Shown piece by piece: positions 3,016 through 54,900 of a stretch of 54,900 nt of DNA (its first letter is position 1; the number at the start of each line of letters is the position of its first letter). The notes under the pieces are model-generated. The model was not told the origin of the DNA. It saw nothing but the letters and a program-made list of their open reading frames with translations, and made no database searches. This DNA is from a virus. The translations under genes were made by a program, and so were the position numbers. The DNA is taken from positions 1 through 54,900 of the IMG/VR virus record IMGVR_UViG_3300028897_000401; one strand, written 5' to 3'.

Positions 3016-3150
3016 CCAGATAGGTTTTCTGCCCACAACGCAATTCCTGTATTTTGAATGAGTGAATCGGTGCGACAAAAAACCGGTTCCGCCTCAAAAA
3101 TTTAATCACCCGGACAGACTGATCCAACTCCAGGCTGGTGGAGACTTCCA

Positions 3151-3237: not shown

Positions 3238-4563
3238 ATGGGCTTAATCAAATTCACTGACGACGAGCTACTAGAGCACCTTTCGGAGTTGATTGCCAAG
3301 TACGGCAGTACGTTGACCAGACGACATTTTGAGGGGTTACCAGAGAGAGAGTATGGCTGGTCTACCTACAAACAAAGATTCGGGTCGTGGAATCAAGCAA
3401 AAGAGCTTGCCTTGATATACGAAGCCAAATCGAAAAAAGCCAAGCCAAAAAAGGGAGACATAGTAAAGAAGAAATTCGACAGGGAATCCGGCACGGTCAC
3501 CACGGTTTCGGGGCGTATCAAAACCCTAGAGGAAGCCCTGACAAAGGGCGAAGTTGATATAAACCAATGGGAAGTCGAACGGTACGTTATCAATTCGTGG
3601 GAAGTGGGAGCGAAGCTCCCCAGCGGTACGGTAGTTGTCGAGCCGCTGTGGCAAGTAAAGGTGTGGTTAAAGCGACGCGTACCAGACGTGACCGATCTTG
3701 CTATCCGCAATCTCATAAAAGACATACCGAAGTGGAAACCCGTAAAACCCCGGAAGCGTTTGCCGGAGAGCGATTTTGCCCTGGAGATGGCTTTGTTTGA
3801 CGCCCATTTCGGCAAGTTGGCCTGGAAAAAGGAAGTTGAACAGGGCGACTACGATCTTGACATAGCCGAACAGTTTTACATGGAATCCGCCGAACAAAAC
3901 CTTACACACGCCGGAAATTATCCGATCAGCAAGATTTTTTACATACTCGGACAAGACTTAATGCACGTCGAGAATTACCAGGGGCAAACCCCTATCGGCG
4001 GACACAAATTAGACGTGGATTCCCGATTGCCGAAAGTTTACACCGTAGCCAAACGTGCGGTGCTGCGAAGCATAGAAATGTGCCTAGAGGTTGCCCCGGT
4101 GGAAGTTTTGTGGATTCCAGGCAATCACGATATGCACGCGAGTTTTTACCTGTCTGAAGTGGTCAAAGAACGGTTCCGCGACGATAAATTTGTCACGGTA
4201 GACAATTCGCCACCCTGGCGCAAGGCGAGGCTTTGGGGAAACCTACTTGTGGCCTATACGCACGATGCGAGTCGCAGAACTGTAAGTATAGTAAATATGC
4301 TGCCGCAATTCTGGCCTGAGTTGTGGGGCAAGTCGAAATTCCGAGAGTGGCACGTCGGCCACAAACACAAGAAAGAAGAGTTGAAATTCCATCCTACACT
4401 CACCGTGGGCGGGGTTATTATTCGACAAATCCCGACGTTAAGCACGATAGACGCGTGGCATTATCAAGAGGGATTTGTAGACGCCGTTCCAGCCGGTGAG
4501 AGTTTTATTTGGACTAAGGATCACGGTATCTGCGGACAGTACACAGCCTACGTGGGCGAATAG
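3238..4563 (+). CDS. Metallophosphoesterase with N-terminal HNH-associated repeat
   Basis: 441 residues. Residues 6-58 resemble the helical repeat found beside HNH homing endonucleases, probably DNA binding. Residues about 180-430 form a calcineurin-like phosphoesterase core: DAH (188-190), GQD (238-240), GNHD (295-298), His342 and GHKH (374-377), the expected di-metal ligands. Related phage proteins are thought to be Mre11/SbcD-like nucleases or DNA phosphatases. The gene opens a new operon after a terminator; the start has AAAAAGGAG upstream. Substrate unknown. Confidence 0.85.
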   Translation: MGLIKFTDDELLEHLSELIAKYGSTLTRRHFEGLPEREYGWSTYKQRFGSWNQAKELALIYEAKSKKAKPKKGDIVKKKFDRESGTVTTVSGRIKTLEEALTKGEVDINQWEVERYVINSWEVGAKLPSGTVVVEPLWQVKVWLKRRVPDVTDLAIRNLIKDIPKWKPVKPRKRLPESDFALEMALFDAHFGKLAWKKEVEQGDYDLDIAEQFYMESAEQNLTHAGNYPISKIFYILGQDLMHVENYQGQTPIGGHKLDVDSRLPKVYTVAKRAVLRSIEMCLEVAPVEVLWIPGNHDMHASFYLSEVVKERFRDDKFVTVDNSPPWRKARLWGNLLVAYTHDASRRTVSIVNMLPQFWPELWGKSKFREWHVGHKHKKEELKFHPTLTVGGVIIRQIPTLSTIDAWHYQEGFVDAVPAGESFIWTKDHGICGQYTAYVGE

Positions 4564-4571
4564 GGGGAGCG

Positions 4572-4955
4572 ATGCGAGTTTATTTGTCTGGCGGAATGAG
4601 AACCAACTGGCAAGAAAAAGTAAAACGGGCATGCCCCGACCTACGGTTTGCTGATCCCATGCTGAATGGCGGCAAGATCATGGCAGAATATGGAACCTGG
4701 GATATGCACGCTGTAAAAAAATGCGACATAGTGTTTACCTATATGGAAAGAACAAATCCGTGTGGAGCCGGGCTCGCCGCTGAAACGGGCTATGCCAGAG
4801 GTTTGGGAAAAACCATTATTCTGGTTTTAGAAAAAGATAACGAACATGTGCCCGACCGCTATTTATTATGGCTGGCCAAGATGGCCGACATAACCTTTGA
4901 CAACCTGGATGACGGCATAGCTTATCTGCAAAAATATCAAGGCATGTTCGTATGA
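4572..4955 (+). CDS. Nucleoside 2-deoxyribosyltransferase-like protein
   Basis: 127 residues with the family layout: MRVYLSGGM at the N terminus, an Asp-rich middle (KKCDIVF), and AETGYARGLGK with probable catalytic Glu71. Family members transfer or hydrolyse deoxyribosyl groups between bases. In phages such proteins may salvage or modify nucleotides or act on nucleotide signals. It overlaps the next gene by 4 bases. A second member lies at 27302. Confidence 0.75.
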   Translation: MRVYLSGGMRTNWQEKVKRACPDLRFADPMLNGGKIMAEYGTWDMHAVKKCDIVFTYMERTNPCGAGLAAETGYARGLGKTIILVLEKDNEHVPDRYLLWLAKMADITFDNLDDGIAYLQKYQGMFV

Positions 4956-5284
4956 CACATGAACAGGCATCACGCTACCTACACAGAATATACCGGGTGC
5001 TTGGCAGCAACGAAGTCGCTATAGTATTCAAGCGAATGAAGCGGTTTTCTGGCATGTGTGAGGGCGACCGTATCCTAATTGATCCTACCAGCGAAATCCT
5101 ACCTGTATTGATACATGAGTTCCTGCATTACTTCTATCCAGACGAAGAGAACCACCCTACCATTGACGCGCTAGAAAATGAGATAGTGAGCCAGCTAACA
5201 GTTAAACAGTGGAGAAACCTGTTAATTCGGCTAGCCTATGCACTCCGCCGGTGTGATAAGTGTGGATCGCAGCTTCCATTATAG
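4952..5284 (+). CDS. Small zincin-type metalloprotease
   Basis: 110 residues with HEFLH at 55-59, a standard HExxH zinc motif, followed by PDEENH, which may provide the third ligand. A CDKCG near the C terminus may be a second, structural site. No signal peptide, so probably cytoplasmic. Target unknown; anti-host or virion-processing roles are both possible. Last gene before a long AT-rich control region. Confidence 0.7.
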   Translation: MTHEQASRYLHRIYRVLGSNEVAIVFKRMKRFSGMCEGDRILIDPTSEILPVLIHEFLHYFYPDEENHPTIDALENEIVSQLTVKQWRNLLIRLAYALRRCDKCGSQLPL

Positions 5285-5426
5285 GTTGCTCTTGTAGACT
5301 GCGCGCCAGCAATTTTTTATACGATATTTTTTAGTTATTTTAACGCATATATGAGTTAGAAGGTTTTGCAACATTTTTCGCAACACTTTGTTGCAATATT
5401 GTTGAACATTTTTAAGTTGCTAAAAT

Positions 5427-5435
5427 TGTTATAAT
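5427..5435 (+). promoter_or_regulatory. Extended -10 sigma70-like promoter
   Basis: TGTTATAAT is an exact TATAAT with the extended TGn. No good -35 lies at 17 bp, but the upstream DNA is AT-rich. It would give a rightward transcript just before the sigma54-like element. Confidence 0.45.
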
Positions 5436-5450
5436 TTCAAGTTCTTCCAT

Positions 5451-5466
5451 TGGCACGCTTTTTGCT
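5451..5466 (+). promoter_or_regulatory. Near-consensus sigma54 (-24/-12) promoter
   Basis: TGGCACG at 5451-5457, four bases, then TTGCT at 5462-5466. This matches the RpoN consensus TGGCACG-N4-TTGCW, with the essential GG and GC separated by exactly 10 bases. Transcription would start near 5477 and run rightward. TGTTGCA/TGCAACA repeats 50-90 bases upstream could bind an enhancer protein. No sigma54 activator gene is visible in the window, so a host activator would be needed. Confidence 0.65.
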
Positions 5467-5603
5467 AGGTGCAACATTTTTGATGCAACAAAATGTTGCA
5501 AATTCTGTGTTGCAGCGCGCTATAGCGTACAACATCTGTAGCATTTCTGCTAACATCTCAAAATCATTACATAACATTTTTGTTATTTTTTTTCCATTGT
5601 GGT

Positions 5604-5909
5604 ATGTATGCGCACACTTCTTGCACTACCTATTATCAAACATTAACCCACACAGAAAAGGACGAGGCCAGGGATAAAGGGAAGCAACGGTACTTAACCT
5701 GGCATAAAATAAGGAAGAGGCAAACTTCAAAACGCGAACTCTTCGGGCGAGTACAGGGAGGCAAAGCATCACAAAGTCCTTCCAGCGAAAGCGAGAGCCG
5801 GGACGGCAAGGAAAGCCCACCACCACCTCAAAACTCCAGCCAGCCAAATCCTTCAGCAGCCTGGGAAGCTGGTAAAGACCCCCAGCCTTTTACGGTTAGG
5901 CTTATTTGA
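5604..5909 (+). CDS. Doubtful ORF, Ser/Pro/Glu-rich
   Basis: An open frame of about 101 residues from ATG 5604, with a Lys/Arg-rich middle and a tail rich in Ser, Glu and Pro. There is no Shine-Dalgarno sequence, and the stretch could equally be the 5' part of a purine-rich RNA with local hairpins such as CTCTTCGGGCGAG. Weakly supported. Confidence 0.25.
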   Translation: MYAHTSCTTYYQTLTHTEKDEARDKGKQRYLTWHKIRKRQTSKRELFGRVQGGKASQSPSSESESRDGKESPPPPQNSSQPNPSAAWEAGKDPQPFTVRLI

Positions 5910-5919
5910 ACCGAGTCCG

Positions 5920-6072
5920 ATGATAACCACACCGGGAAAGACGATCCAACTCCAGCCAGGAGAAGGAGCCTTTCATAAGGTAGTCGATCCCACTCATCGG
6001 GAAGGGATAGGACATCAAGTCGCCCCAGACGAGGTTATTTTCAGTTCGACCCGAAATGCAACGGAACTGTAG
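5920..6072 (+). CDS. Possible small protein with IQLQPGEGAF motif
   Basis: ATG 5920 opens a 50-residue frame with a protein-like sequence (TIQLQPGEGAFHKVVD, then GIGHQVAPDEV). The upstream ribosome site is weak. A similar peptide (IQLQAGGDFQAV) is encoded around 3124-3158, at the edge of the lysis terminator. It may be a real tiny gene or a remnant. Confidence 0.35.
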   Translation: MITTPGKTIQLQPGEGAFHKVVDPTHREGIGHQVAPDEVIFSSTRNATEL

Positions 6073-6364
6073 CCGCGAGGCTCAAAATCTTTTGGACGTT
6101 TGAGGGGGAGCATGATTCCTTTCAAATACATGATGGCGTTCCTATTTGGGTGCAGGGACAATTAGGAAAGACTATGACTGGAAACGGCCATTGTTCGTAC
6201 TAGGGCTTATGGACACAGTAGGCGGTGGAACCGCTGAGAAACAGAGAGTCCCAACCTTAGCTGGTTGGCAGACCCTAGCTGAACGCGATTGCACTTGAAA
6301 AAGGAGATCATGTATTTGACAGGGATCGTGTTCTTTCCTGAACCGTTCAAAAAAGGAGAAAAGC
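6073..6364 (+). other. Stretch without a convincing gene
   Basis: GAGGGGGAG at 6102-6110 precedes ATG 6112, which opens only 17 codons. Another frame stays open across about 6080-6200 without a start codon. Local inverted repeats occur, such as GCGGTGGAACCGC near 6221. It may be leader RNA or a decayed gene upstream of 6365. Confidence 0.3.
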
Positions 6365-6595
6365 ATGAAAGCGAAGAAATGCTGCCATTGCAGCAAAGAG
6401 ATAGTAGGAGAACCCTTCAAGGAGTTTACGAGGGAGACTTATTACCATAACTATCATCGCACCCACGTCAAGAAAACGTACTGGCACGAGCATTGTTGGT
6501 ATGAAGTGGAGAAAATCAATGAGCAAGTGAGAGAGGATTCCCTGAAAGAGCTTAGAGAGTTGGCGAAAAAACTTGGCGTCGAGATCACGGTTTAA
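6365..6595 (+). CDS. Small zinc-binding-type protein
   Basis: 76 residues, ATG behind AAAGGAG. CCHCS near the N terminus and HEHCW around residues 41-45 suggest one Cys/His metal site; the C-terminal third is a charged helix. First gene of a run of three small genes. Function not recognised. Confidence 0.65.
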   Translation: MKAKKCCHCSKEIVGEPFKEFTRETYYHNYHRTHVKKTYWHEHCWYEVEKINEQVREDSLKELRELAKKLGVEITV

Positions 6596-6605
6596 GGAGA
6601 AAAGC

Positions 6606-7014: not shown

Positions 7015-7225
7015 ACGCTTTTCCGAAAGGCTGGAGCAAATGTTCCAGCCCAAGGTGAAGGTTTAGCGGGCAATGTCACTCCCAATGGTTGCGATAGTAC
7101 CAACGGCGGTGGTTGCCTGGGGGAGTCAACTTAGGGGGAATCGTGGCAGAGTAGGTGGACGAGCTTAATAGCCGTCGCAACTGAAGGCGTCAAGGTTCAA
7201 CCGCAAGAGCAAGAAGGGGGAGAAA
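7015..7225 (+). other. Intergenic region with strong hairpin
   Basis: No supported gene. A hairpin, GGCTGGA with TCCAGCC, spans about 7029-7050 and encloses ATGTTCCAGCC; a near-identical hairpin recurs at about 7600-7628. G-rich segments follow. It is a candidate leader for the gene at 7226. Confidence 0.4.
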
Positions 7226-7579: not shown

Positions 7580-7853
7580 GTGTGCGCACAAAAACCAAGG
7601 CTGGAGCAGTTGAAGATGTTCCAGCCCACATTGGAGCCGATCAGCATACGGAAAGTAGGCCAAGAGGACGTAATCGCCATGAGCCACCCGATTTCACATA
7701 GTCGTTAACCGTCCGAATGGACGCCTAAAGCTATCACTGATCTTGGGTCTGACCGGGAAACCCGCGAGGCAAACAGGGAACGGCAAAACTGCTGGATATG
7801 CGTGGACTTGGGAACGGCTAGGACGCAGTTGATCGGTTGCAATGTGTAACTTT
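7580..7853 (+). other. Intergenic region, second copy of the GGCTGGAGCA hairpin
   Basis: Begins with TGTGCGCACA (7581-7590), then the GGCTGGAGCA / TGTTCCAGCC hairpin (about 7600-7628) related to that near 7029. A small stem CGTCC-GAAT-GGACG follows near 7709. A 30-codon frame from ATG 7616 and an open stretch beyond its TAA exist but lack a ribosome site. More likely untranslated leader RNA. Confidence 0.4.
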
Positions 7854-7945
7854 TCTCCAGACAAACCGTGTAAGTCGGCAATAAAGAGTGATTCTGACCC
7901 TAGACCGTGAGAGTCGGTTAAAGAAGATAGCGACTTGTCTGGAGA
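7854..7945 (+). promoter_or_regulatory. Structured 5' leader closed by an 11-bp stem
   Basis: TCTCCAGACAA (7854-7864) pairs perfectly with TTGTCTGGAGA (7935-7945). Inside lie two direct repeats, ACCGTGTAAGTCGG (7865-7878) and ACCGTGAGAGTCGG (7904-7917), each able to form a small CCG/CGG hairpin. The closing stem ends 12 bases before the G-rich ribosome site of the gene at 7968. This looks like a cis-regulatory RNA or protein-binding leader; no riboswitch class is recognised. Confidence 0.5.
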
Positions 7946-7967
7946 ATTTAACATGAGGGGGGATAAA

Positions 7968-14498: not shown

Positions 14499-14573
14499 GT
14501 GTCGGTAGCTCAGTGGTTAGAGCATGTGGCTGTGGCCCATAAGACAACGGTTCGACTCCGTTCCGACACCCCA
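14499..14573 (+). tRNA. tRNA-His (GTG)
   Basis: A full cloverleaf: acceptor GTGTCGG/CCGACAC, D-arm GCTC...GAGC, anticodon stem TGTGG/CCATA with loop CTGTGGC (anticodon GTG), T-arm AACGG-TTCGACT-CCGTT, discriminator C and encoded CCA. A G at 14498 opposite C73 gives the G-1:C73 pair that defines tRNA-His. A functional phage-encoded tRNA; it may support translation or could mark an ancestral attachment site. Confidence 0.93.
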
Positions 14574-17595: not shown

Positions 17596-17909
17596 ACAAG
17601 TACCTTGAAATGATGTACGAGAGAGCAGAAAGTAAAATGCTGGTCGGTATTTGCCCCTTCTGCGATGCCGACTCTGAAATGGAAAGTTGGGTTGTCGCTA
17701 ATTTTCAGGCTTGCAAGCCAGTAAATTATCCTTGCGCATGGGCTACTTGTATATTTTGTCCGCACGCCGAGTATGCGAATCTGCCCTTTATGATGGACGG
17801 GGATGGCGAAGTAACTATGGATGATACCGAAGAGGGTTGCACTATGGCCGGTAGGCGTGCGTGGCGCAAATACCGAGACTTTTTCAATGAAGAATCGGAA
17901 ACACCGTAA
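17592..17909 (+). CDS. Restriction-alleviation-like Cys protein
   Basis: 105 residues. CPFCDADSEME near the N terminus and a later CIFCPHAEYA pair resemble the Lar-like zinc-ribbon proteins of phages, some linked to restriction alleviation; the resemblance is limited. Its 3' end overlaps the convergent integrase gene by 26 bases, so little free DNA lies beside the integrase. Confidence 0.6.
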   Translation: MNKYLEMMYERAESKMLVGICPFCDADSEMESWVVANFQACKPVNYPCAWATCIFCPHAEYANLPFMMDGDGEVTMDDTEEGCTMAGRRAWRKYRDFFNEESETP

Positions 17910-19311
17910 TTTCACCCGTTCGCACGTCAATTTCCACCCGGTCTATGAGAATGGAGAGAATCCTTTTCATGGTAACCCGGTCGAAATTGGCGTTGCGGAT
18001 AGAGGTTACCTTGTCGGCGACTACTTCATGGTTGTAAATTTCCGCTTCCGCCTTTCTCAACTGTACGCCGGTGGCGTCCAGGCGTTGCGACAATTCACGC
18101 TTGGACTCTTCAAGTTCAAGGACTTTTTTCTTAATAAGATGCCTGTCCTTGGAATTGAAGAGGTCGAGAAGATTGTCTTGCTTAACTGAGAGGTCGTCTA
18201 TTTTGGATTCTAGAATTTCGTATTGCTCTACGAGTCGGCTCTTTCTGTGTTGGACGTGCTTTGATATGGCGGTGGCATTTATGTCGTGCGACCGGAAAAA
18301 TTCCAGGACGGCCTCTTCTAGCGGCTCGCGTTTGATGGATTTCCGGATGCATGTATCACAGTGGTCGTGGGAGCGTGTATGGAATTGACAACGGTATCGC
18401 GCAGTATCCCGGTCTTTGCGGTACTGACCCGCCCAGGAACTTCCGCAGGGTTTGGCGACGACAAGTCCGGACAAGAGAAACCTGTCATCGTCGTAAACCC
18501 TGGTGGCTGCGGTACGACCTTTGATGACGGTTTGCGTGCGTTCCCACACCTGGCGGTCGATTATGCCGATGTGATCCGACGGGAGTACCTCACCGCCATG
18601 CCTTTGAAAGCTGCGGTTTTCCCTGGCAGGATCGGCGATGTAATGGACGGATTTCAACATGCGCAAAATTTGCTGGTGGTTCCAGAGTTTCCCGCCGGTA
18701 GTTTTGATGCCTTGAGCATTGAGCCAATCTGCTATCTTGCGAGCGCCTTGATAGTTGAGGGCTCGGTTGTATATCTCTTTGACAATTTCCGCGTCTTTGT
18801 TGGGCTTGAGCCGTTTGTGCTCACGGTCGAGTTCAAAACCGAAAGAAACCCAGCCGCCCGTCCAGCGCTGCTTTTTGGCGAGCTTGTTCATGGCATCAGT
18901 AACCCGGAGCGAAATAACGTCGGATTCGTATTCGGCAAAAGAAACGAGCATAGTGCGGAACAGGCGTCCCATGGCGGTTTGTGTATCGACATTCTCTGTT
19001 ACCGATACTATGCCGACGCCGTTCTTTTCAAACTCTTCACTCAGAGACAAAAAATCTCTGACACGACGGGAAAAACGATCGAGCCGGTAGACGCATACTT
19101 TGTCTATACTGTTTTCGGAAACTACCCTTCGCAGGGCGTTGAGGCCGGGGCGAGACAGCGACCGCCCCGTTTTGCCTATATCAACAAAGGTGTTGGTAAG
19201 CTCCCATCCCTGGGATTTGATGTAATTCTCGGTGGCGTCCCTTTGTACTTCAGGGCTTACAGAAATATCGCCGCGTTCCTCGGATTGTCGGACGTAAACT
19301 GCGGTTTTCAT
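17884..19311 (-). CDS. int: Large serine integrase
   Basis: 475 residues on the minus strand. Resolvase domain with catalytic Ser10 in YVRQSEERGD and the YRLDRFSRR arginine motif; then a recombinase domain (about 160-270), a zinc-ribbon region (about 290-330, with C-GSSWAG and HDHCDTC) and a coiled coil (about 365-430). This is the complete architecture of phage serine integrases, which recombine attP with attB and need a directionality factor for excision. Its ATG directly follows the repressor stop, so the two are co-transcribed. Confidence 0.93.
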   Translation of the reverse strand: MKTAVYVRQSEERGDISVSPEVQRDATENYIKSQGWELTNTFVDIGKTGRSLSRPGLNALRRVVSENSIDKVCVYRLDRFSRRVRDFLSLSEEFEKNGVGIVSVTENVDTQTAMGRLFRTMLVSFAEYESDVISLRVTDAMNKLAKKQRWTGGWVSFGFELDREHKRLKPNKDAEIVKEIYNRALNYQGARKIADWLNAQGIKTTGGKLWNHQQILRMLKSVHYIADPARENRSFQRHGGEVLPSDHIGIIDRQVWERTQTVIKGRTAATRVYDDDRFLLSGLVVAKPCGSSWAGQYRKDRDTARYRCQFHTRSHDHCDTCIRKSIKREPLEEAVLEFFRSHDINATAISKHVQHRKSRLVEQYEILESKIDDLSVKQDNLLDLFNSKDRHLIKKKVLELEESKRELSQRLDATGVQLRKAEAEIYNHEVVADKVTSIRNANFDRVTMKRILSILIDRVEIDVRTGEITVFPILH

Positions 19312-19833
19312 TTAGCCAGCCAGATTGATGGGAGCGGAGAAGTGAGGGTCGTCGTCATCCTCGCTGTCCAGTTTTACGTAGTCGCTGCCACTTCCGTAAT
19401 AGTCGTTGTGTATAGCTTTACGTTTATGTTTCCACAGATAAGTATCGTAGGCTTCGATGGCGATACGATAAAAGGCCATGCGCATAGCCTTGAGGCTTCT
19501 GCCGATAGTTGTGTTTACGAATCTTTCGTCGGTGGCCAAACAAAGGAATTTCGTAACAGTCCTGGGTTCGTCGTGATAAATCTTTGCCAGTTTGCACGCC
19601 AACTCTTGCGGAATACCGCAAAATTGCCGCTCGCTAATTCCGAAAATGTAATCCAGCGACCAGCCTTTTTCTATGGCTACCTTTATGATTTTTTCCCATG
19701 GCAGACCGTCTTGAGCGATATAGCGCGAAATACTGTTAGCATGCGGAATGTCGAGTATCTGTGCAAGTTCCTCGTAGGTGTCAACATTTGCAAGGACTTT
19801 AATTTTTTCGAAAACGGCTTTGGCGGATTTCAT
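19312..19833 (-). CDS. CI-type repressor
   Basis: 173 residues, minus strand, behind GAGGGG. The N-terminal 65 residues (FEKIKVLANVDTYEELAQIL, then PWEKIIKVAIEKGWSLDYIFG) match the phage CI helix-turn-helix family. The remaining part is helical and acidic with no S24 Ser/Lys protease dyad, so RecA-stimulated self-cleavage is not expected. It is divergent from a Cro-like gene across a 97-base region with a 16-bp palindrome, and directly upstream of the integrase in one operon. Probably maintains lysogeny. Confidence 0.8.
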   Translation of the reverse strand: MKSAKAVFEKIKVLANVDTYEELAQILDIPHANSISRYIAQDGLPWEKIIKVAIEKGWSLDYIFGISERQFCGIPQELACKLAKIYHDEPRTVTKFLCLATDERFVNTTIGRSLKAMRMAFYRIAIEAYDTYLWKHKRKAIHNDYYGSGSDYVKLDSEDDDDPHFSAPINLAG

Positions 19834-21639: not shown

Positions 21640-21932
21640 CCAAGACAAGTTTAAAGGGTACAGCGCTAGAGGGGTTTATGGAATTTGTCGCCGAAAAGCT
21701 GGGCGCAGACACCATGATGCTAGTAGCCTGCAAGGCGGAAGGGTTAAAGGAAAAAGACGAGTACACATCTATAGGTGTGGTTATCGGCAATACGCAGGCT
21801 CTGGCTACGGCTGTAGCCAACGCATTGGCAGGGAATCCACCTCTGGATTTGTTTGTAATGCAAGCGCTTGGAAAGGGAATCTTGCAGAAGTTGGGTTTAG
21901 ACAACCCGATGAAAGGGGGAGAGAATGAGTGA
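21636..21932 (+). CDS. Hypothetical early protein
   Basis: 98 residues, overlapping the nuclease gene by 4 bases and the next by 8. Helical, with an Ala/Gly-rich centre (ALATAVANALAGNP). It may be a partner of the nuclease or the gp3-like protein. No domain recognised. Confidence 0.6.
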   Translation: MTKTSLKGTALEGFMEFVAEKLGADTMMLVACKAEGLKEKDEYTSIGVVIGNTQALATAVANALAGNPPLDLFVMQALGKGILQKLGLDNPMKGGENE

Positions 21933-43161: not shown

Positions 43162-43448
43162 AAAAAATCTAGTTTACTTTTACTAAACTTTTAGTTTAAC
43201 GAGTGTATAGGGGCGATTTTAAAGCCCTTTTTTTGTTTTTTGGGTGGCTTATTGATAAGGATCGACAACAAGCGAGACAAAACGAGTTTTTAGAGAGGCA
43301 TTTTGGCTAAACGCCCTATTCATAAGTATCTACAGGATGACGTATAGCCACGCTATTGAGCGAAAAAGAATCGACCCTTACCTTACTATTCGGGCTTTTT
43401 AGGGCTTTATTGCTAAGTAGTCGCAATAACAAGGAAAAACGAAGATTT
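43162..43448 (+). other. Intergenic region between sugar cassette and late genes
   Basis: AT-rich, no gene supported. Repeated TTTACTTTTACTAAAC and TTTAGTTTAAC segments near 43172-43200 form inverted repeats; a terminator follows at 43210. Further T-rich GGGCTTTTTAGGGC sequence lies near 43390. Holds the boundary between cassette and late operon. Confidence 0.6.
43210..43236 (+). terminator. Terminator of the sugar cassette
   Basis: GGGC (43211-43214) pairs with GCCC (43224-43227) across an A/T-rich loop, followed by a long T run. Short stem, but in the right place after the last cassette gene. Confidence 0.65.
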
Positions 43449-43464
43449 AGGCATACTTTTTGCT
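43449..43464 (+). promoter_or_regulatory. Sigma54-like element before the late genes
   Basis: AGGCATA-CTTT-TTGCT has GG (43450-43451) and GC (43462-43463) exactly 10 bases apart, and shares CTTTTTGCTA with the stronger element at 5451. The -24 half is imperfect (AGGCATA against TGGCACG). Transcription would start near 43475 and cover ParB-like, terminase and portal genes. Confidence 0.45.
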
Positions 43465-43611
43465 ATGCGCAGTGGCCCCTACAAAATAGAGGAAGAAATC
43501 GAGTTTAGAGATTGCGCCAAATGCGGCGAAAAATACGGTCGAGTTATATGGAGCGCAGAAAAACTTTGCTACAGGTGTTGGGATGAAACCAGAAGAGAAA
43601 GTCAGTCCTGA
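43465..43611 (+). CDS. Small zinc-ribbon protein
   Basis: 48 residues from ATG 43465. CAKCGEKYG and CYRCW form one zinc ribbon. The start lies directly behind the sigma54-like -12 box, and no ribosome site is visible, so either the start or the promoter is wrong. Overlaps the ParB-like gene by 29 bases. Confidence 0.45.
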   Translation: MRSGPYKIEEEIEFRDCAKCGEKYGRVIWSAEKLCYRCWDETRRESQS

Positions 43612-44803: not shown

Positions 44804-46240
44804 ATGGCAAACGACACAATGAAGCTGTTCGACGACTACTGGCCGCATCCCCATCAGTACCGTGTGCATACGTGTGGAAAGCGATTCGTCTACGTCATGG
44901 CCGGAAGGCGTGGCGGTAAAACCAAGTGTGGGGCACGAGAATTTCTCAGGCGCATTTTTAAGAAATACCGCAAGATAGCGCATCTGCCGTACAAAGCCAA
45001 ATACGAGATCGCCGGTGGTGCGCCGCGAATAAAACCACGCTTACATTACTGGGCAGTCGCTCCGGATTACAGTCTATCAAAGGTGCAACAAAGGGAGCTT
45101 TTTGACGTCTTGCCCCCTGAGCAGATAGCCAAGTGGAAAGCCTCAGACAAAGAGTTGTGGTTAAAGGGCGACATTCTGATTGAGTTTAAAAGTGCGCAGA
45201 ATCCTGACTCGCTGGTCGCGGTTGGCTTGAATGGAATGTGGGTTGACGAGGTGGCGCGGCTGAGGCCGACGGCATGGAGCGGCAATCTAAGGCCGTGCCT
45301 TTCCGATACGGGTGGCTGGGCCATATTTACAACAACACCACTTGGAAAGAACTGGAGCTACGAAGAGATTTATCGGCTGGGAAACCCGAAAGATGCGTTA
45401 TACGAGCCGGAGTATGCCAATATCACCTGGAGAACAGTCGACAATATACGGGTTCCACTTCTTGCTGATGAAGTTGAAAAAGCCAAAAAGACGATGCCGC
45501 TCAAATATTTCATGCGTGAGTATGAGGCGTCGCTAGAGATATTTGCCGGGCAAGTTTATGACAACTGGGAGCCTTACGTTCATAAGGTAGGCGAAAACAA
45601 CAAGCATGGCATCGTGCGGCCACCTAGGCGGTTTGATAGGTTGATTTGCGGTGTCGATTGGGGATACGCAAACCCCGGCTGTCTTATTTTGTTTGGCGTC
45701 AAAGACACGAAACTGAGGGATATAGGTGGAAACAGAATCCCGAAGTTTTGGGCGCTGAGAGAGATTTACAAAAAACGGCTTCCGGTGGTCAGTCCCGATC
45801 CCGACGCTGATAGTTGGGTGAAGGAAGCAAAAAATCTTAACGCCTATTGCATGAGAAAGTACGGAAAAGCCGTAGAGGCTTTCTATTGCGACCCCAGCGA
45901 GCCAGCATACATAGACTATTTTCTTGAAGCGGACTTACCGGCGCAACCCGCGAACAATGCCGTCGGGCCGGGCATACAAACCGTATCGACGCTGATGGAG
46001 CCATACAGTGCCACGGGTACACCGTGGCTTTTTTATGTTGAGGATTCAAACGACGACTATTACGGTTGCGAGAACCTCATAGAACAGAAGGGCTCGTACA
46101 GGTTTAAGGAAGACAAGGAAGAGCCGGTTAAAGAAAACGACCACGCCGTCGATGCAGAGAGATATGCTCTGCATACCTATGTGGAAGAGTATGGCATCGA
46201 AATCAGAGTCATTGATATTCCGCGCAAGCAAGCGGCCTGA
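44804..46240 (+). CDS. Terminase large subunit
   Basis: 478 residues. Walker A AGRRGGKT (33-40), Walker B MWVDEV (145-150), then the C-terminal RNase H-like nuclease with GVDWGYANP (Asp near 285), FYCDP (about 362) and NDHAVDAERYAL (about 445). ATP-driven DNA packaging motor and nuclease, complete. First-rank marker that this is a tailed phage. Confidence 0.93.
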   Translation: MANDTMKLFDDYWPHPHQYRVHTCGKRFVYVMAGRRGGKTKCGAREFLRRIFKKYRKIAHLPYKAKYEIAGGAPRIKPRLHYWAVAPDYSLSKVQQRELFDVLPPEQIAKWKASDKELWLKGDILIEFKSAQNPDSLVAVGLNGMWVDEVARLRPTAWSGNLRPCLSDTGGWAIFTTTPLGKNWSYEEIYRLGNPKDALYEPEYANITWRTVDNIRVPLLADEVEKAKKTMPLKYFMREYEASLEIFAGQVYDNWEPYVHKVGENNKHGIVRPPRRFDRLICGVDWGYANPGCLILFGVKDTKLRDIGGNRIPKFWALREIYKKRLPVVSPDPDADSWVKEAKNLNAYCMRKYGKAVEAFYCDPSEPAYIDYFLEADLPAQPANNAVGPGIQTVSTLMEPYSATGTPWLFYVEDSNDDYYGCENLIEQKGSYRFKEDKEEPVKENDHAVDAERYALHTYVEEYGIEIRVIDIPRKQAA

Positions 46241-46552: not shown

Positions 46553-49468
46553 ATGGGTCATTTTCATAAAGTGTTGAATCTGATTGAACGCAAGAGTTGG
46601 GACCGGGTGTTTCTGCGCAGCAGAGAGTTGGAAATGTTGGGCAAAGACGTGCGGAATCCATACAAAGAAAGTGATATTTATCACTCTTGCATCAAATATA
46701 CGGCGAGGGCTTTGTCGCAACTTCCCTGGAGAATTATAGAGGTACGGGGTCAAGGCGAGAATGTAGAGGAAATCAATATAGAAGACGAAAATCACGAGGC
46801 CCGAAAGCTGTTTCGACAACCGAACGAAACCATGAGCCGCTATGATTTTTGGGAAGCCCTCTACACGTACTATCTCGACCAGGGAGAGAGTTTTGTGGTG
46901 CCGTGGCCCCCATTGACTATGGCGAAAGGGAGGTGGCCAGAAGAGTTGTTTGTTATCCATCCGCAATACATGGAGCACGTACTTCATCCGCAGACAAAGC
47001 GGCTAATTGGATGGAACTACAAGCCCGGCGGAAGAGAGGTTATTAGGTTAGACGTAAAAGAGGTTTTGCACTGGCGAAATTTCAATCCATACGATCCCTA
47101 TCGCGGGTTGAGGCCGATTGACATTATTCGCATAGCTGTTGACTCCGACCACAAGGCGGCGAAGTATAACGAGACATTCTTTGAACATGGAGCCATAGTT
47201 TCCGGAGTTATAGAAACCAAGAACAAATTCACCAAAGAACAGGAAGAGAGGTTTAAGGCCCAACTGGAGCAGCGCCACATGGGCTATTTGCGCTCTCATA
47301 AATGGCTGATTCTCGACAAGGGAGCCGAGTACAAAGAGGCCGGTCTAACACAGAGGGACATGGAGTGGATTGAGGGAAGAAGGATTTCTGCCGAAAGAAT
47401 TATGCAGATGTTTGGCATGAAAAAAGCCGTTCTGTCGGTAACCGACGACCTTAATTACGCCATAGCCAAGGAGCAGAAAAAATCGTGGTGGACCGACACT
47501 TTGTCGCCGCTGGCCCGGATGGTACAGGATCAATTCCGGCTGAAGTTTTGGTCTGCGATGCCACAGGAAAACCTGAAAGCGTATTTTGACCTTACGGTGG
47601 TTGACGAGTTGCAGGAGGATTTCAACGAAAAGGTCGAGGCAGGATACAAGCTGTGGCAAATGGGCTTTACGGCAAACGAGGTCAACGAAAGGATGGCGCT
47701 GGGATTCGAAGAGAAAACCTGGCGCGACGCGTGGTGGGCTCCGTCCACCGTAATGCCGATTGGTGAAACCGCACAGGAAATACCACAGATGCTCCCGCCG
47801 CCGCCTGAACCCGAACCAGAAGAAGAGGAAGAAGAGGAAGAAGAGGAAGAAGAGGAAAAGATCACACGCAAGCACGCTGGTTTAATCGAATCCAAGAAAA
47901 AATGGCTGTGGTGGAGTGATTCGCTAAAAGAAAAGGTGTGGCTCAAGTTTGTTGCGAAAACAGAACCGCTGGAGAAAAAGTTTGAAAAGAAAACCCAGCG
48001 ACTGTTTTTTGAGATGCGCAAGAAAGCACTAGCCGCACTCAAGGAGCCAGAAAAACATGCCAAGGGGATCGACGAACTAAGCAACCTCACATGGGAAGAG
48101 GAAAAGAAAAATGTAACTCAGTATTCGATGCCGCTTTATAGTGAGGCCATGGAAACGGGTTTTGCGTTTATGGGCGAGCTTATAGGGGTAGACGACTTGA
48201 GCTGGGAGATAACCTATCCGCAAGCTATGGAATTTGTGGCACAGAAGTCTTTAAAGATCAAGGGCATAGTGGATACGGTTGACAAGCAAATAAAAGGTGT
48301 TGTGCGGGACTCCATCGAAAACGGCTGGAGCATAGACAAGACGGCTGATGAATTGAAAACTCTTTTCAACTTTGCCAACAAACGTGCAAACGTGATCGCC
48401 CGAACCGAGGTTATTGGTGCGGTTAATGCCGGTGAGCACATAGCGATGAAAGAAGCCGGAATCGAGTATCGAATGTGGCTTACCGCACGCGATGAAAGGG
48501 TGCGAGATAGCCACCGGGCAGCCGATGGTCAAATAAAACAAATAGACGAGCGGTTTAATGTTGGCGGATATAAGCTGATGTACCCCGGTGATCCGGGTGG
48601 TCCGGCCAGCGAGATTATCCAATGCAGATGTATTCCGCTTCCGGTGGAAAAGCCTGTGGATGAGGAAGAGGTCGAGAGTACCGTTATTCCTAATACTCCT
48701 GCGCAGTATGCGATCTCTACTAAAAAACGGCAAAAAGAAAAAATGACTTTGAGAGCGGAAAAACGTGGCATGACCCTAAATGAATACAGGACTGCTTGCG
48801 ATAGACACATCAAAGACCTTGTTAATAACTCGTCAGTATGGATGCGACGCTCGGAAATGAGTATTCATAAAATACTTGAAGATGGACGATTCAAAACGCA
48901 GTTTGAAGTTAAGAGGTCTGGTGGTTTACTCGATAATGGCATTAGGGAGACATTTGAGAAAGATGTGCTTGGAATACCTAGAAATATAGATGTTAAAAAA
49001 CGTCCTGTGTACGGATACTTATCAGCCGATCCGAATGGTATGGTACTTGAAGAAGTTAAAAGACATTTACGAATAACGCAATATGGCGAAGTTGCTATTA
49101 AATTCAAGGATTCCGTGAAAAGTAGAGCCAGCTTTGTTATGGGTGACACGCTTGCCGAAACTGGATGTGGGAACAACGCTGTTTTTCGACCGATGCCAGT
49201 AAGAAAACCTGGATTTGAAGCAGGGTATTATGAGGGAAAATTTGAGCCGCTGGAATATGTAAGCATTGATAAAGTTAAAAGTAAAGCTGGTATTGTCCAG
49301 AATGCGCATAATTATTGGGAAACCCAGATATTTAACGGTCTTACTCCGGATGATATAGAGGAAATCGTTTTCCATTGGAAGCCAGGACCGCAACTCCAAG
49401 AGAAACTGAATAGGCTTGGTATTAAATGGCGTCATCTTGAAAAAGAGATTTATGGGAGAACGCAATGA
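46553..49468 (+). CDS. Portal-MuF fusion with C-terminal effector-like domain
   Basis: 971 residues in three parts. Residues 1 to about 410: HK97-family portal (GRRISAERIMQMFGM region typical). About 423-436: poly-Glu linker. About 600-700: SPP1 gp7/MuF head-morphogenesis domain (VIARTEVIGAVNAGE, TARDERVRDSHRAADG, GGPASEIIQCRC). About 717-971: an AT-richer extension resembling DUF3626-type proteins (KKRPVYGYLS, ITQYGEVAIKF, ASFVMGDTL, NYWETQIFNG), which may be an ADP-ribosyltransferase-like toxin. MuF proteins of temperate phages are known carriers of polymorphic toxins; fusion to the portal itself is uncommon. The effector role is inferred. Confidence 0.8.
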   Translation: MGHFHKVLNLIERKSWDRVFLRSRELEMLGKDVRNPYKESDIYHSCIKYTARALSQLPWRIIEVRGQGENVEEINIEDENHEARKLFRQPNETMSRYDFWEALYTYYLDQGESFVVPWPPLTMAKGRWPEELFVIHPQYMEHVLHPQTKRLIGWNYKPGGREVIRLDVKEVLHWRNFNPYDPYRGLRPIDIIRIAVDSDHKAAKYNETFFEHGAIVSGVIETKNKFTKEQEERFKAQLEQRHMGYLRSHKWLILDKGAEYKEAGLTQRDMEWIEGRRISAERIMQMFGMKKAVLSVTDDLNYAIAKEQKKSWWTDTLSPLARMVQDQFRLKFWSAMPQENLKAYFDLTVVDELQEDFNEKVEAGYKLWQMGFTANEVNERMALGFEEKTWRDAWWAPSTVMPIGETAQEIPQMLPPPPEPEPEEEEEEEEEEEEEKITRKHAGLIESKKKWLWWSDSLKEKVWLKFVAKTEPLEKKFEKKTQRLFFEMRKKALAALKEPEKHAKGIDELSNLTWEEEKKNVTQYSMPLYSEAMETGFAFMGELIGVDDLSWEITYPQAMEFVAQKSLKIKGIVDTVDKQIKGVVRDSIENGWSIDKTADELKTLFNFANKRANVIARTEVIGAVNAGEHIAMKEAGIEYRMWLTARDERVRDSHRAADGQIKQIDERFNVGGYKLMYPGDPGGPASEIIQCRCIPLPVEKPVDEEEVESTVIPNTPAQYAISTKKRQKEKMTLRAEKRGMTLNEYRTACDRHIKDLVNNSSVWMRRSEMSIHKILEDGRFKTQFEVKRSGGLLDNGIRETFEKDVLGIPRNIDVKKRPVYGYLSADPNGMVLEEVKRHLRITQYGEVAIKFKDSVKSRASFVMGDTLAETGCGNNAVFRPMPVRKPGFEAGYYEGKFEPLEYVSIDKVKSKAGIVQNAHNYWETQIFNGLTPDDIEEIVFHWKPGPQLQEKLNRLGIKWRHLEKEIYGRTQ

Positions 49469-52108: not shown

Positions 52109-54900
52109 AGATCGTTTGTTGTAAATGCAGCCACAAGTACGACGCCCGGTTTTATGAATGCGACAAGGTAAGTACGCCTATTGTCGAATGCCCTAATTGC
52201 GGGCTGAAACACGCGGTGGAATTTACTCCTTTCGCGAGCGAAACCGAAGACCTGAAAGAGGTCGAAGAGGTAAACCTGGGCGGCGGGCCGTACTATGCGG
52301 TTATGGGCGGCAGTCGCATTTTGAGTATCGACGGCACAACGGATCATTCGGGTTCCGATGGCGGCGATGTATCGGATTGGAGCCACGGCGATAATTTTAT
52401 TGTGGCGGTTTTAATTCATTCGGGCGGCAAAGAAACAGAGGCTTCAACGTACAAACTAAGGTGGCGCGATGCCTCTGACGAGGGAGCTTTTGCCGATCTT
52501 GCCGATACGGGTGAAATGAATTACACGGCCAGCCAAGCAAGCTGGAGCCACGGTGACGAAGTAACGTCCGCACAGAGAAAATGCACCACGGAGGGCGACA
52601 CTTGGCAGAATGGCGAAAGGGTTAAAGGACAGGTTTTAAGTGATTCGATCGATTTGCCGGATGATTACGAAACGGAAATTTGGTTCGGGATAAACCCGGC
52701 TACAGCCGACGATTTGCACGATTACGAATTTGAATTGTATTCAACGGCTCAGGGTGCTTCCTTGGGTACGTGCGGGCCAGACACGTTAACCCTGACCATG
52801 ATCGAAGCGGCCCCGGAAACGGGATACGCCTGGGGTGAAGAAAGTCCCGGTACTGGCTACAAAGCAGTATCCTGGCAGAACATGTATCCAAACCCCTCGG
52901 TAGTGGACGGCCCGGACTACGGCAAACTGGAAGTACCTGACCAATTCAGACATAGCCCGGTGAAATTGGTTGGTGGAGACAAAACGTACTCTGTCAATTT
53001 AAACAAATACGGCAGCGGATCGGGAAGTGTGGAAGCATGGGTGAGGGGGGCGGATGCAAGCTGGACGGACGTTGATACCTTGGAGGTTGCGTGCGGTAAG
53101 TATCACGCGCTCGCCATTAAAACCGACGGTACGTTGTGGGCGTGGGGTCGCAATTCTTACGGCCAACTCGGTCTGGGCGACACAACTTCCCGGTCTTCTC
53201 CGGTGCAAGTGGGATCGTTAACGAATTGGAGTCAAACATCGGACGGGTACGGTCACGCCTTAGCCATTAAAACCGATGGCACTCTGTGGGCATGGGGCCG
53301 CAACAATTACGGCCAACTCGGTTTAGGTGACACGACCGGACGGTCGTCGCCGGTACAGGTTGGATTGTTGGCGAATTGGAGTCTAATATCTAGCGGGTAC
53401 GACCACTCTCTCGCCGTAAAAACCGACGGCACGTTATGGGCCTGGGGTGCCAATACCTATGGCGAACTTGGCTTAGGCGACACAGCCCCTCGGTCTTCCC
53501 CGGTACAAGTCGGAGCACTGACAAATTGGAATCGAATTGGTGTTGGTTATTACCACTCCCTCGCCATTAAAGCCGATGGCACTCTGTGGGCATGGGGCCG
53601 GAATGACACAATGGGGCAACTCGGCCTTGGTGATACAACCAGCCGGTCATCGCCGGTACAAGTGGGAGCACTAACAAATTGGAATCGTGTTAGGTGTGGC
53701 GACTACCATACCCTCGCCATTAAAACCGACGGTACGCTTTGGGTGTGGGGCCGCAACGACAAAGGCCAACTCGGCCAGGGCGACATAACTCCCCGATCTT
53801 CTCCGGCACAGGTTGGAGCACTGACGAATTGGAGTCAGACTCCGAACACCACTGACCATACCATCGCCATTAAAACCGACGGTACGTTGTGGGCGTGGGG
53901 TTACAATGCAAGCGGCCAGCTTGGCTTGGGTGATACAACCAGCCGGTCATCGCCGGTACAAGTGGGATCGCTGGCGAATTGGAGTAAGGTTGAGTGCGGC
54001 GACTACTTCACCTTCGCCATCAAAACTGACGGCACTCTATGGGCGTGTGGCGAGAATATGTATGGCCAGCTCGGCAAGGGCGATATAATTTACCGTTCTT
54101 CTCCGGTACAGGTGTCCGGGATAAAGACGTGGGCGAATCTTCTCCGGTACTACGCTAATGTTGCGATTTGCAAAGGTGACGGCACGTTGTGGATATGGGG
54201 CCGCAACGACTACGGCCAACTCGGTCTGGGCGACATAACTCCCCGGTCTTCTCCGGTGCAAGTGGGATCGTTGGTAACGTGGCATAAAGCTGGCTCCGGC
54301 ATTTATCACTCTGTTGCTATAAAAATCGATCGTACATTGTGGGTGTGGGGTGCCAACGCATACGGCCAACTCGGTTTAGGTGACATAACTCCCCGATCTT
54401 TTCCGGCACAAGTGGGAGCAATGACGAATTGGAGTCAAGTCGCCTGCGGCGGTACTCACACCGTTGCCGTAAAAACCGATGGTACTCTATGGGCCTGGGG
54501 TGCCAATACCTATGGCCAGCTCGGTTTAGGTGACATAACTCACCGATCTTCGCCAGCACAAGTGGGAGCACTGACAAATTGGAGTCAAGTCGCCTGCGGC
54601 GGTACTCACACCGTTGCCGTAAAAACCGATGGGACACTGTGGGCGTGGGGCCGTAACAACTACGGCCAACTCGGCCAGGGGGATATAACCGATCGGTCTT
54701 CGCCAGCACAAGTGGGAGCACTGACAAATTGGAGTCAAGTCGGTTGCGGCGCTGGTCACACCCTCGCCATTAAAACCGACGGTACATTGTGGGTGTGCGG
54801 TAGTAACGACTTTGGTGAACTCGGTCAAGGCAACAGCGGCGCTGGGACCCACCGTTCGTCGCCGGTACAGGTTGGATCACTGACGAATTGGAGTCAAACA
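52105..54900 (+). CDS. RCC1-repeat virion protein, 3' end outside window
   Basis: At least 932 residues from ATG 52105, open to the end of the window. Residues 1-35 hold a zinc ribbon (CCKCSH, CPNCG). Residues about 70-320 are beta-rich. From about 325, some 12 RCC1-type repeats of about 50 residues follow, each with HxLAIKTDGTLWAWG and YGQLGLGD. Such repeats form beta propellers. In a phage structural block this is probably a tail or receptor-binding protein; enzyme or regulator roles of cellular RCC1 are not implied. Confidence 0.8.
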   Translation, partial: MKIVCCKCSHKYDARFYECDKVSTPIVECPNCGLKHAVEFTPFASETEDLKEVEEVNLGGGPYYAVMGGSRILSIDGTTDHSGSDGGDVSDWSHGDNFIVAVLIHSGGKETEASTYKLRWRDASDEGAFADLADTGEMNYTASQASWSHGDEVTSAQRKCTTEGDTWQNGERVKGQVLSDSIDLPDDYETEIWFGINPATADDLHDYEFELYSTAQGASLGTCGPDTLTLTMIEAAPETGYAWGEESPGTGYKAVSWQNMYPNPSVVDGPDYGKLEVPDQFRHSPVKLVGGDKTYSVNLNKYGSGSGSVEAWVRGADASWTDVDTLEVACGKYHALAIKTDGTLWAWGRNSYGQLGLGDTTSRSSPVQVGSLTNWSQTSDGYGHALAIKTDGTLWAWGRNNYGQLGLGDTTGRSSPVQVGLLANWSLISSGYDHSLAVKTDGTLWAWGANTYGELGLGDTAPRSSPVQVGALTNWNRIGVGYYHSLAIKADGTLWAWGRNDTMGQLGLGDTTSRSSPVQVGALTNWNRVRCGDYHTLAIKTDGTLWVWGRNDKGQLGQGDITPRSSPAQVGALTNWSQTPNTTDHTIAIKTDGTLWAWGYNASGQLGLGDTTSRSSPVQVGSLANWSKVECGDYFTFAIKTDGTLWACGENMYGQLGKGDIIYRSSPVQVSGIKTWANLLRYYANVAICKGDGTLWIWGRNDYGQLGLGDITPRSSPVQVGSLVTWHKAGSGIYHSVAIKIDRTLWVWGANAYGQLGLGDITPRSFPAQVGAMTNWSQVACGGTHTVAVKTDGTLWAWGANTYGQLGLGDITHRSSPAQVGALTNWSQVACGGTHTVAVKTDGTLWAWGRNNYGQLGQGDITDRSSPAQVGALTNWSQVGCGAGHTLAIKTDGTLWVCGSNDFGELGQGNSGAGTHRSSPVQVGSLTNWSQT
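53080..54900 (+). repeat. Tandem RCC1-coding repeats, about 150-156 bp each
   Basis: About 12 units with conserved AAAACCGACGGTACG and GGCCAACTCGG segments. The units near 54420 and 54576 are almost identical over more than 100 bases, so the array has expanded recently. Copy number may vary between related phages. Confidence 0.85.

What the first reader, a model, noticed from the sequence alone, without database searches (positions are those of the whole stretch)
5451..5466. Near-perfect sigma54 promoter in a phage control region
TGGCACG-CTTT-TTGCT fits the RpoN consensus with correct GG-N10-GC spacing. Upstream lie inverted TGTTGCA repeats suited to an enhancer-binding protein. Sigma54 control of phage genes is rarely documented and would link phage expression to host nitrogen, stress or envelope signals.
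Basis: partly seen in the sequence, partly recalled or inferred. Interest (0 to 1): 0.7.

Follow-up and report, generated by a model that had tools for sequence, protein, structure and literature searches.

The report
Sigma54-type promoter in phage repeat array
A phage carries a textbook docking sequence for the bacterial transcription factor sigma54 in a long stretch without genes, squeezed between repeats that look like replication or operator sites; it is too good to be an easy accident, but nothing yet shows that it is used or that it reports host nitrogen or stress.

Summary
The element is real: TTGGCACGCTTTTTGCT at 5450-5466 (+) is the best sigma54 match in the window, outscores 41 of 42 bound E. 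coli sites, and is reached in 0 of 100 shuffles and 0 times in 1.62 Mb of other phage DNA. It lies in a ~1,080-nt non-coding stretch (5285-6364). The TGTTGCA repeats lie on both sides of the element, and similar arrays in other phages sit beside primase-helicase genes without sigma54 elements, so they look more like initiator or operator sites than enhancers. No coding gene starts for 888 nt after the predicted start, the record has no activator of the Sigma54_activat family, and a TGTTATAAT extended -10 lies just upstream. In favour: the same 16-mer is over-represented between genes in viral contigs, often at promoter distance, and Vibrio T5-like phages keep -24/-12 boxes beside DnaA boxes while the spacer drifts. 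I rate a genuine sigma54-type element as most likely (0.45), an unused match in an origin/control region next (0.33). Host and close relatives are unknown.

The parts
5451..5466 (+). sigma54-type -24/-12 element TGGCACG-CTTT-TTGCT; predicted start about 5477
5427..5435 (+). extended -10 of sigma70 type, TGTTATAAT; the only TGNTATAAT of the window; predicted start about 5442
5364..5406 (.). left repeat block: TGCAACA 5367, CGCAACA 5379, TGTTGCA 5389, TGTTGAA 5400; dyad GCAACA-CTT-TGTTGC 5380-5394
5470..5543 (.). right repeat block: TGCAACA 5470 and 5484, TGTTGCA 5494 and 5508, degenerate copies 5528 and 5537; dyad TGCAACA-AAA-TGTTGCA 5484-5500
5555..5597 (.). AT-rich stretch, possible unwinding element or weak terminator (ATAACATTTTTGTTAT followed by T run)
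5285..6364 (+). non-coding region between gene 4952-5284 and gene 6365-6595; no codon signal in any frame tested
6080..6364 (+). strongly folding stretch (-104.1 kcal/mol, z -5.39, 0 of 200 shuffles), no Rfam match; possible structured end of a leader RNA
6365..6595 (+). first credible coding gene downstream (76 aa), no Pfam or PHROG match

Best explanation
5451-5466 is a genuine sigma54-type promoter element set inside a phage repeat array that serves as a replication origin or control site. Host RNA polymerase carrying sigma54 would bind it as a closed complex and, when a host activator acts, transcribe rightward from about 5477 through the right-hand TGCAACA block into a long RNA without genes that ends in a strongly folded 285-nt segment before gene 6365. 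Shown: sequence match, position in non-coding DNA, repeat array, folded segment by prediction. Inferred: binding by sigma54, activation, the transcript and its purpose (RNA regulator, leader, or transcription across an origin).
For: Score 20.98 bits, above 41 of 42 bound E. coli sites, 0 of 100 shuffles, 0 sites as good in 1.62 Mb of other phage loci. Expected 0.0016 per window. Of 75 IMG/VR stretches with the identical 16-mer, 32 are between genes against 1,101 of 8,645 (12.7%) composition-matched control 16-mers, and 15 of the 32 have a same-strand ORF start 3-74 nt after the predicted start; after removing similar flanks, 23 of 57 are intergenic. Four of ten ORFs so placed that I scanned are viral Hsp20 genes. 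In Vibrio T5-like phages an element of 18.7-20.8 bits stands 8-10 nt before DnaA-box sequences in 8 of the 14 Demerecviridae regions fetched, with TGGCA and TTGC invariant in an 8-sequence alignment and the six columns between them not, so the layout repeats-TATAA-element-initiator boxes exists elsewhere.
Against: No gene within 888 nt; no activator in the record (PF00158; RpoN's PF04552 was not searched in the window). An extended -10 at 5427-5435 can explain transcription without sigma54. No close relative holds the region, so conservation is untested. Only one strong site in 54.9 kb, unlike the site-rich phages. E. coli ChIP-seq shows that most bound sigma54 sites appear transcriptionally inactive (PMC4591121, sections 6 and 11 read). 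The element was noticed first and tested afterwards.
Confidence: 0.45

Rival explanations
1. An unused, accidental match inside an iteron-type replication origin or multi-operator region; transcription, if any, starts from the extended -10 at 5427-5435.
For: Sigma54-matrix hits in 1 of 34 cluster windows. TGNTATAAT occurs once in the window, here.
Against: Expected number of such a match is 0.0016 per window and 0.00002 in this gap. The window's own helicase (24946-26358) and initiator-like gene (23120-23983) are about 18 kb away, unlike the other arrays.
Confidence: 0.33
2. The element is a phage motif read by a protein other than sigma54, such as an operator or origin-binding protein, whose site happens to coincide with the -24/-12 consensus.
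For: In some phages the motif comes in close pairs: within 20 nt 6 convergent, 5 divergent and 9 tandem among 197 sites of the 16-mer loci, and 3 convergent pairs in T5-like regions; 0 of 20 site-bearing records encode RpoN's DNA-binding domain and none an activator over cut-off.
Against: Most sites are single, the window's is single, and the pattern reproduces the sigma54 consensus and GG-N10-GC spacing; position 28-38 nt before Hsp20 genes fits a promoter.
Confidence: 0.13
3. The full model of the first reader: a sigma54 promoter with TGTTGCA inverted repeats as enhancer for a host activator, linking the phage to nitrogen, stress or envelope state.
For: The dyad GCAACA-N3-TGTTGC at 5380-5394 lies about 83-97 nt before the predicted start, and TGCAACA-N3-TGTTGCA resembles the NtrC palindrome TGCACCA-N3-TGGTGCA (recalled, no call).
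Against: Repeats also overlap and follow the start; clusters elsewhere lack sigma54 elements; host and activator unknown. My direct scan for the combined architecture was mistyped and tests nothing.
Confidence: 0.09

Closest known systems
sigma54 (RpoN) promoters of E. coli, e.g. hypA, rpoH, glmY sites in PMC4591121 Table 1
   Same: -24 TGGCACG, -12 TTGCW, GG-N10-GC; score above 41 of 42 of them
   Different: 41 of 42 lie within 254 nt of a gene or sRNA start; here 888 nt to the next gene; binding and activator untested
-24/-12-like elements of Vibrio T5-like phages (Demerecviridae: pVp-1, VPT02, Ceto, JSF10, Luma, Pylo, KIT04, River4)
   Same: near-consensus element in a long non-coding region, TATAA-type sequence just upstream in most, repeats upstream and initiator-type boxes just downstream
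   Different: boxes are DnaA type (TTATCCACA) and upstream repeats TTYGCACC, not TGCAACA; unrelated phage; function there is also untested
Iteron-type phage and plasmid origins (lambda O iterons, P1 RepA iterons; recalled, P1 also in PMC7157519 section 7)
   Same: clustered short repeats in AT-rich non-coding DNA
   Different: no initiator gene next to the array; repeats in both orientations with irregular spacing
RNA-based prophage origins of mycobacteriophages (PMC7157519, abstract and section 7 read)
   Same: origin-like non-coding stretch without repA beside it, with structured RNA potential
   Different: those phages replace integrase by parABS; this one has a serine integrase and CI-type repressor

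Membership tests
sigma54-dependent promoter | TGG(C/T)A...TGC with GG-N10-GC spacing | tested here: met
sigma54-dependent promoter | transcription by RNA polymerase-sigma54 from about 12 nt after the -12 box | not testable with these tools
   no transcript data
sigma54-dependent promoter | need for an AAA+ activator bound to upstream sites | tested here: inconclusive
   no PF00158 protein in the record, host unknown; dyad at 5380-5394 could be a site
sigma54-dependent promoter | gene or RNA start close downstream (usual, not strictly defining) | tested here: not met
   no credible coding start before 6365; a small RNA is not excluded
sigma54-dependent promoter | host encodes RpoN | not testable with these tools
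   host not identified; only one distant genome hit, a Phycisphaerales MAG at 27% identity
iteron-type replication origin | cluster of short initiator-binding repeats | tested here: met
   6 of 10 exact copies of the window in 148 nt, 14 copies with up to one mismatch in 5300-5640 against 0.95 per 300 nt on average; that an initiator binds them is not shown
iteron-type replication origin | AT-rich unwinding region beside the repeats | tested here: inconclusive
   80-87% AT stretches near 5315, 5405 and 5555; function unknown
iteron-type replication origin | initiator or helicase gene nearby | tested here: not met
   nearest replication genes found at 23120-26358
iteron-type replication origin | replication starts there | not testable with these tools
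   no replication data; GC skew only dips at 5001-6000
sigma70 extended -10 promoter | TGNTATAAT | tested here: met
   5427-5435; the scanner that requires a -35 hexamer does not list it

The most novel reading that the evidence does not exclude
Unrelated phages (this one and the Vibrio T5-like phages) place a sigma54-type -24/-12 element directly against the initiator boxes of an origin-like region, so that a poised, activator-dependent RNA polymerase gates replication or makes its RNA, tying phage replication to a host sigma54 activator.
Probability: 0.13. Interest if true: 0.8.

Novelty: new variant of a known kind. Interest (0 to 1): 0.5.

Why it matters
If used, this would be a phage promoter that host RNA polymerase can occupy but not open without a host activator, placed at an origin-like array. 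The wider signal is more useful than the single site: near-consensus sigma54 elements are over-represented between genes in some viral contigs and conserved in cultured Vibrio T5-like phages, whose hosts can be studied with rpoN mutants, so the idea that phages recruit sigma54 can be tested at once.

Tried and rejected
Close relatives for a conservation test: blastn of 4500-6600 against 50,697 phage records gave none; the 110-aa neighbour gave no relative; exonuclease relatives (3 loci; 33 loci by profile, 1 genome hit) do not share the region. Portal (22 loci) and AAA+ ATPase (2 loci) relatives are distant.

Known RNA family in 5200-6500: none at gathering score; two sub-threshold microRNA-family hits were taken as chance. 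A coding reading of 5604-5909 was considered (open frame of about 100 codons) and rejected on codon statistics.

TGTTGCA repeats as operators of the phage's CI-type repressor (19312-19833): rejected, the cI-cro gap holds no copy and has its own sigma70-type promoter TTGACT-17-TAGAAT.

A second sigma54 promoter at 43448-43464 (15.3 bits): doubtful, a 48-codon frame starts at 43466 inside the would-be promoter (frame read by eye). The site at 6481 lies inside gene 6365-6595.

TGCAACA as a known published motif: a text search gave only chance strings (listing); the Desulfovibrio activator paper PMC4641369 has no such string in its text.

Caulobacter phage RW, whose primase is 42% identical to that of L152, has no TGCAACA cluster in the 12 kb fetched, so arrays do not simply follow the primase.

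Full report
The window is a 54.9-kb virus record. It is a tailed phage: large terminase 44804-46240, portal with head-morphogenesis domain 46553-49468, DnaB-type helicase 24946-26358, exonuclease 3238-4563. It is probably temperate: serine integrase 17884-19311(-), CI-type repressor 19312-19833(-) and a Gp3-like recombination directionality factor 21925-23169.

Observation. Loose matches are no more frequent than in shuffles (13 against 8.96), so what counts is the exactness. With a matrix built from the 42 intergenic sense sites of E. coli sigma54 ChIP-seq (PMC4591121 Table 1, read), 5450-5466 scores 20.98 bits; the training median is 16.24; the next site of the window 15.78. None of 100 whole-window shuffles, none of 2,000 local shuffles and no position in 1.62 Mb of other phage loci reaches it (the loci fetched because of the 16-mer were left out). 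Under base composition 0.0016 are expected per window. This is a post hoc test of a motif that was noticed first.

Surroundings. 5285-6364 has no codon signal in any tested frame, whereas most flanking genes do (4952-5284 only weakly). Six of the ten exact TGTTGCA/TGCAACA copies of the window fall in 5367-5514, two before and four after the element; with one mismatch allowed there are 14 in 5300-5640. Two dyads with 3-base spacers lie at 5380-5394 and 5484-5500. A TGTTATAAT extended -10, the only one in the window, lies at 5427-5435. The stretch 6080-6364 folds far better than shuffles (z -5.39, 0 of 200), while 5477-5760 does not (z -0.77). The next credible gene starts at 6365.

What the repeats are. 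Thirty-four distinct clusters hold six or more copies. Among 51 neighbouring proteins Pfam finds AAA_25 in 9, PriCT_2 in 5, DUF3987 in 2, Prim-Pol in 2, DnaB_C in 1 and Sf6-type small terminase in 6; among 37 distant proteins of the same loci it finds none of the five replication families and the terminase once. So such arrays tend to sit by replication genes. One of 34 cluster windows has a sigma54-matrix hit of 14.6 bits or more, against 2 of 267 control windows, and that hit consists of the repeat itself. In this phage the helicase and initiator-like genes are about 18 kb away, so the origin reading is by analogy only.

Is sigma54 plausible in phages? The identical 16-mer is in 75 IMG/VR stretches. 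Thirty-two lie between genes (43%), against 1,101 of 8,645 control 16-mers (12.7%); 15 of the 32 have a same-strand ORF start 3-74 nt after the predicted start. Without similar flanks it is 23 of 57; among loci with at most one further site, 13 of 36. Of ten such ORFs scanned, four are Hsp20 genes and six have no family. The 75 loci carry 188 further matrix hits in 678 kb (15.2 per 54.9 kb; 91 intergenic) against 43 in 1.59 Mb of other loci (13 intergenic); some of the 75 are related or the same contig, so these are not independent counts. In 20 chosen records TTGGCAYRNNNNTTGCW has 54 matches, 17 of them the 16-mer that brought the records in, and the same pattern read backwards has none. None of the 20 encodes an RpoN DNA-binding domain and none an activator over cut-off. 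In some of these phages the motif comes in pairs, which could mean an operator rather than a promoter, but pairs are a minority. The window's phage has one strong site only and is not of this site-rich kind.

Cultured parallels. A 30-base query from an Hsp20 promoter led to Vibrio T5-like phages. Of 14 Demerecviridae-type regions fetched, 11 have a hit of 16.9 bits or more outside long genes (in River4 an annotated small ORF overlaps it): pVp-1, VPT02, Ceto, JSF10, River4, Luma, Pylo, KIT04, PG07, vspsw1 and the Pectobacterium phage My1; IME260 has one only inside the A1 gene, and Klebsiella vB_KpnLmqsRe28-2 and Escherichia DT571/2 have none. In eight the element stands 8-10 nt before DnaA-box sequences (TTWTNCACA), in PG07 and vspsw1 35 nt, in My1 none within 300 nt. 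In an alignment of eight, TGGCA and TTGC are invariant and the six columns between are not. These eight are one lineage, not eight independent events, and flanking columns are also well conserved. The layout, repeats, TATAA-type sequence, element, boxes, is like that of the window, although the boxes differ.

Literature. Bound sigma54 sites in E. coli mostly appear transcriptionally inactive, 52% lying more than 500 bp from a gene start (PMC4591121, section 11), so a bound site need not be a promoter. T5 genes are said to be read by sigma70 polymerase (PMC7472727, abstract in a listing). rpoN loss in Salmonella gives resistance to FelixO1 and Aji_GE that the authors trace to glutamine and RpoS, not to phage promoters (PMC8744999, passages). 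A Pectobacterium phage Q19 protein was proposed as sigma54-like on weak evidence (PMC7693777, passages). My searches (listings only, open-licence papers only) showed no report of a mapped sigma54 promoter in a phage, which is not proof that none exists.

Judgement. Decisive tests need the host, a transcript map and closer relatives, none of which I had.

Noticed in passing
6080-6364 and 7580-7950: Two non-coding stretches fold much better than shuffles (z -5.39, 0 of 200; z -4.72, 0 of 100) and match no Rfam family; a 46-nt inverted repeat closes the first. Possibly new structured phage RNAs.
   Followed up: partly
whole window, e.g. 1823, 7580, 20722, 32724, 51706 (+) and 5617 (-): TGTGCGCA is the most over-represented 8-mer (17 against 1.5 expected); GTGTGCGCA is 9 times on + and once on -; AGTGTGCGCATACATAC with up to 3 mismatches 7 times against 0.04. 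Possibly the phage's own promoter, operator or processing site.
   Followed up: partly
3107-3133 and 5930-5955: Two non-coding stretches share GATCCAACTCCAG and flanks at 89% over 27 nt, each near a small hairpin.
   Followed up: no
7015-7225 and 7580-7650: The hairpin GGCTGGAGC...GTTCCAGCC occurs twice in neighbouring non-coding gaps.
   Followed up: no
L260 (G016), L261 (G008), L262 (G003): IMG/VR phages with many -24/-12-like elements, in G008 partly as tandem pairs 26 nt apart followed by a recurring palindrome ATCAACGACTT.
   Followed up: partly
L011, L012, L015, L069: Viral Hsp20 genes preceded at 28-38 nt by the identical sigma54-type 16-mer.
   Followed up: partly
L263-L276: Vibrio T5-like phages with conserved -24/-12-like element against DnaA boxes in a long non-coding region.
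   Followed up: yes
L139-L257: TGCAACA/TGTTGCA arrays beside primase-helicase genes in many viral contigs, possible shared initiator-box type.
   Followed up: partly
28925-29806: Transposase of IS110 type inside the phage.
   Followed up: no
53110-54793: 150-bp tandem repeat, 11 copies, read as RCC1-like by eye.
   Followed up: no
14499-14573: tRNA-His gene, the only tRNA found.
   Followed up: no
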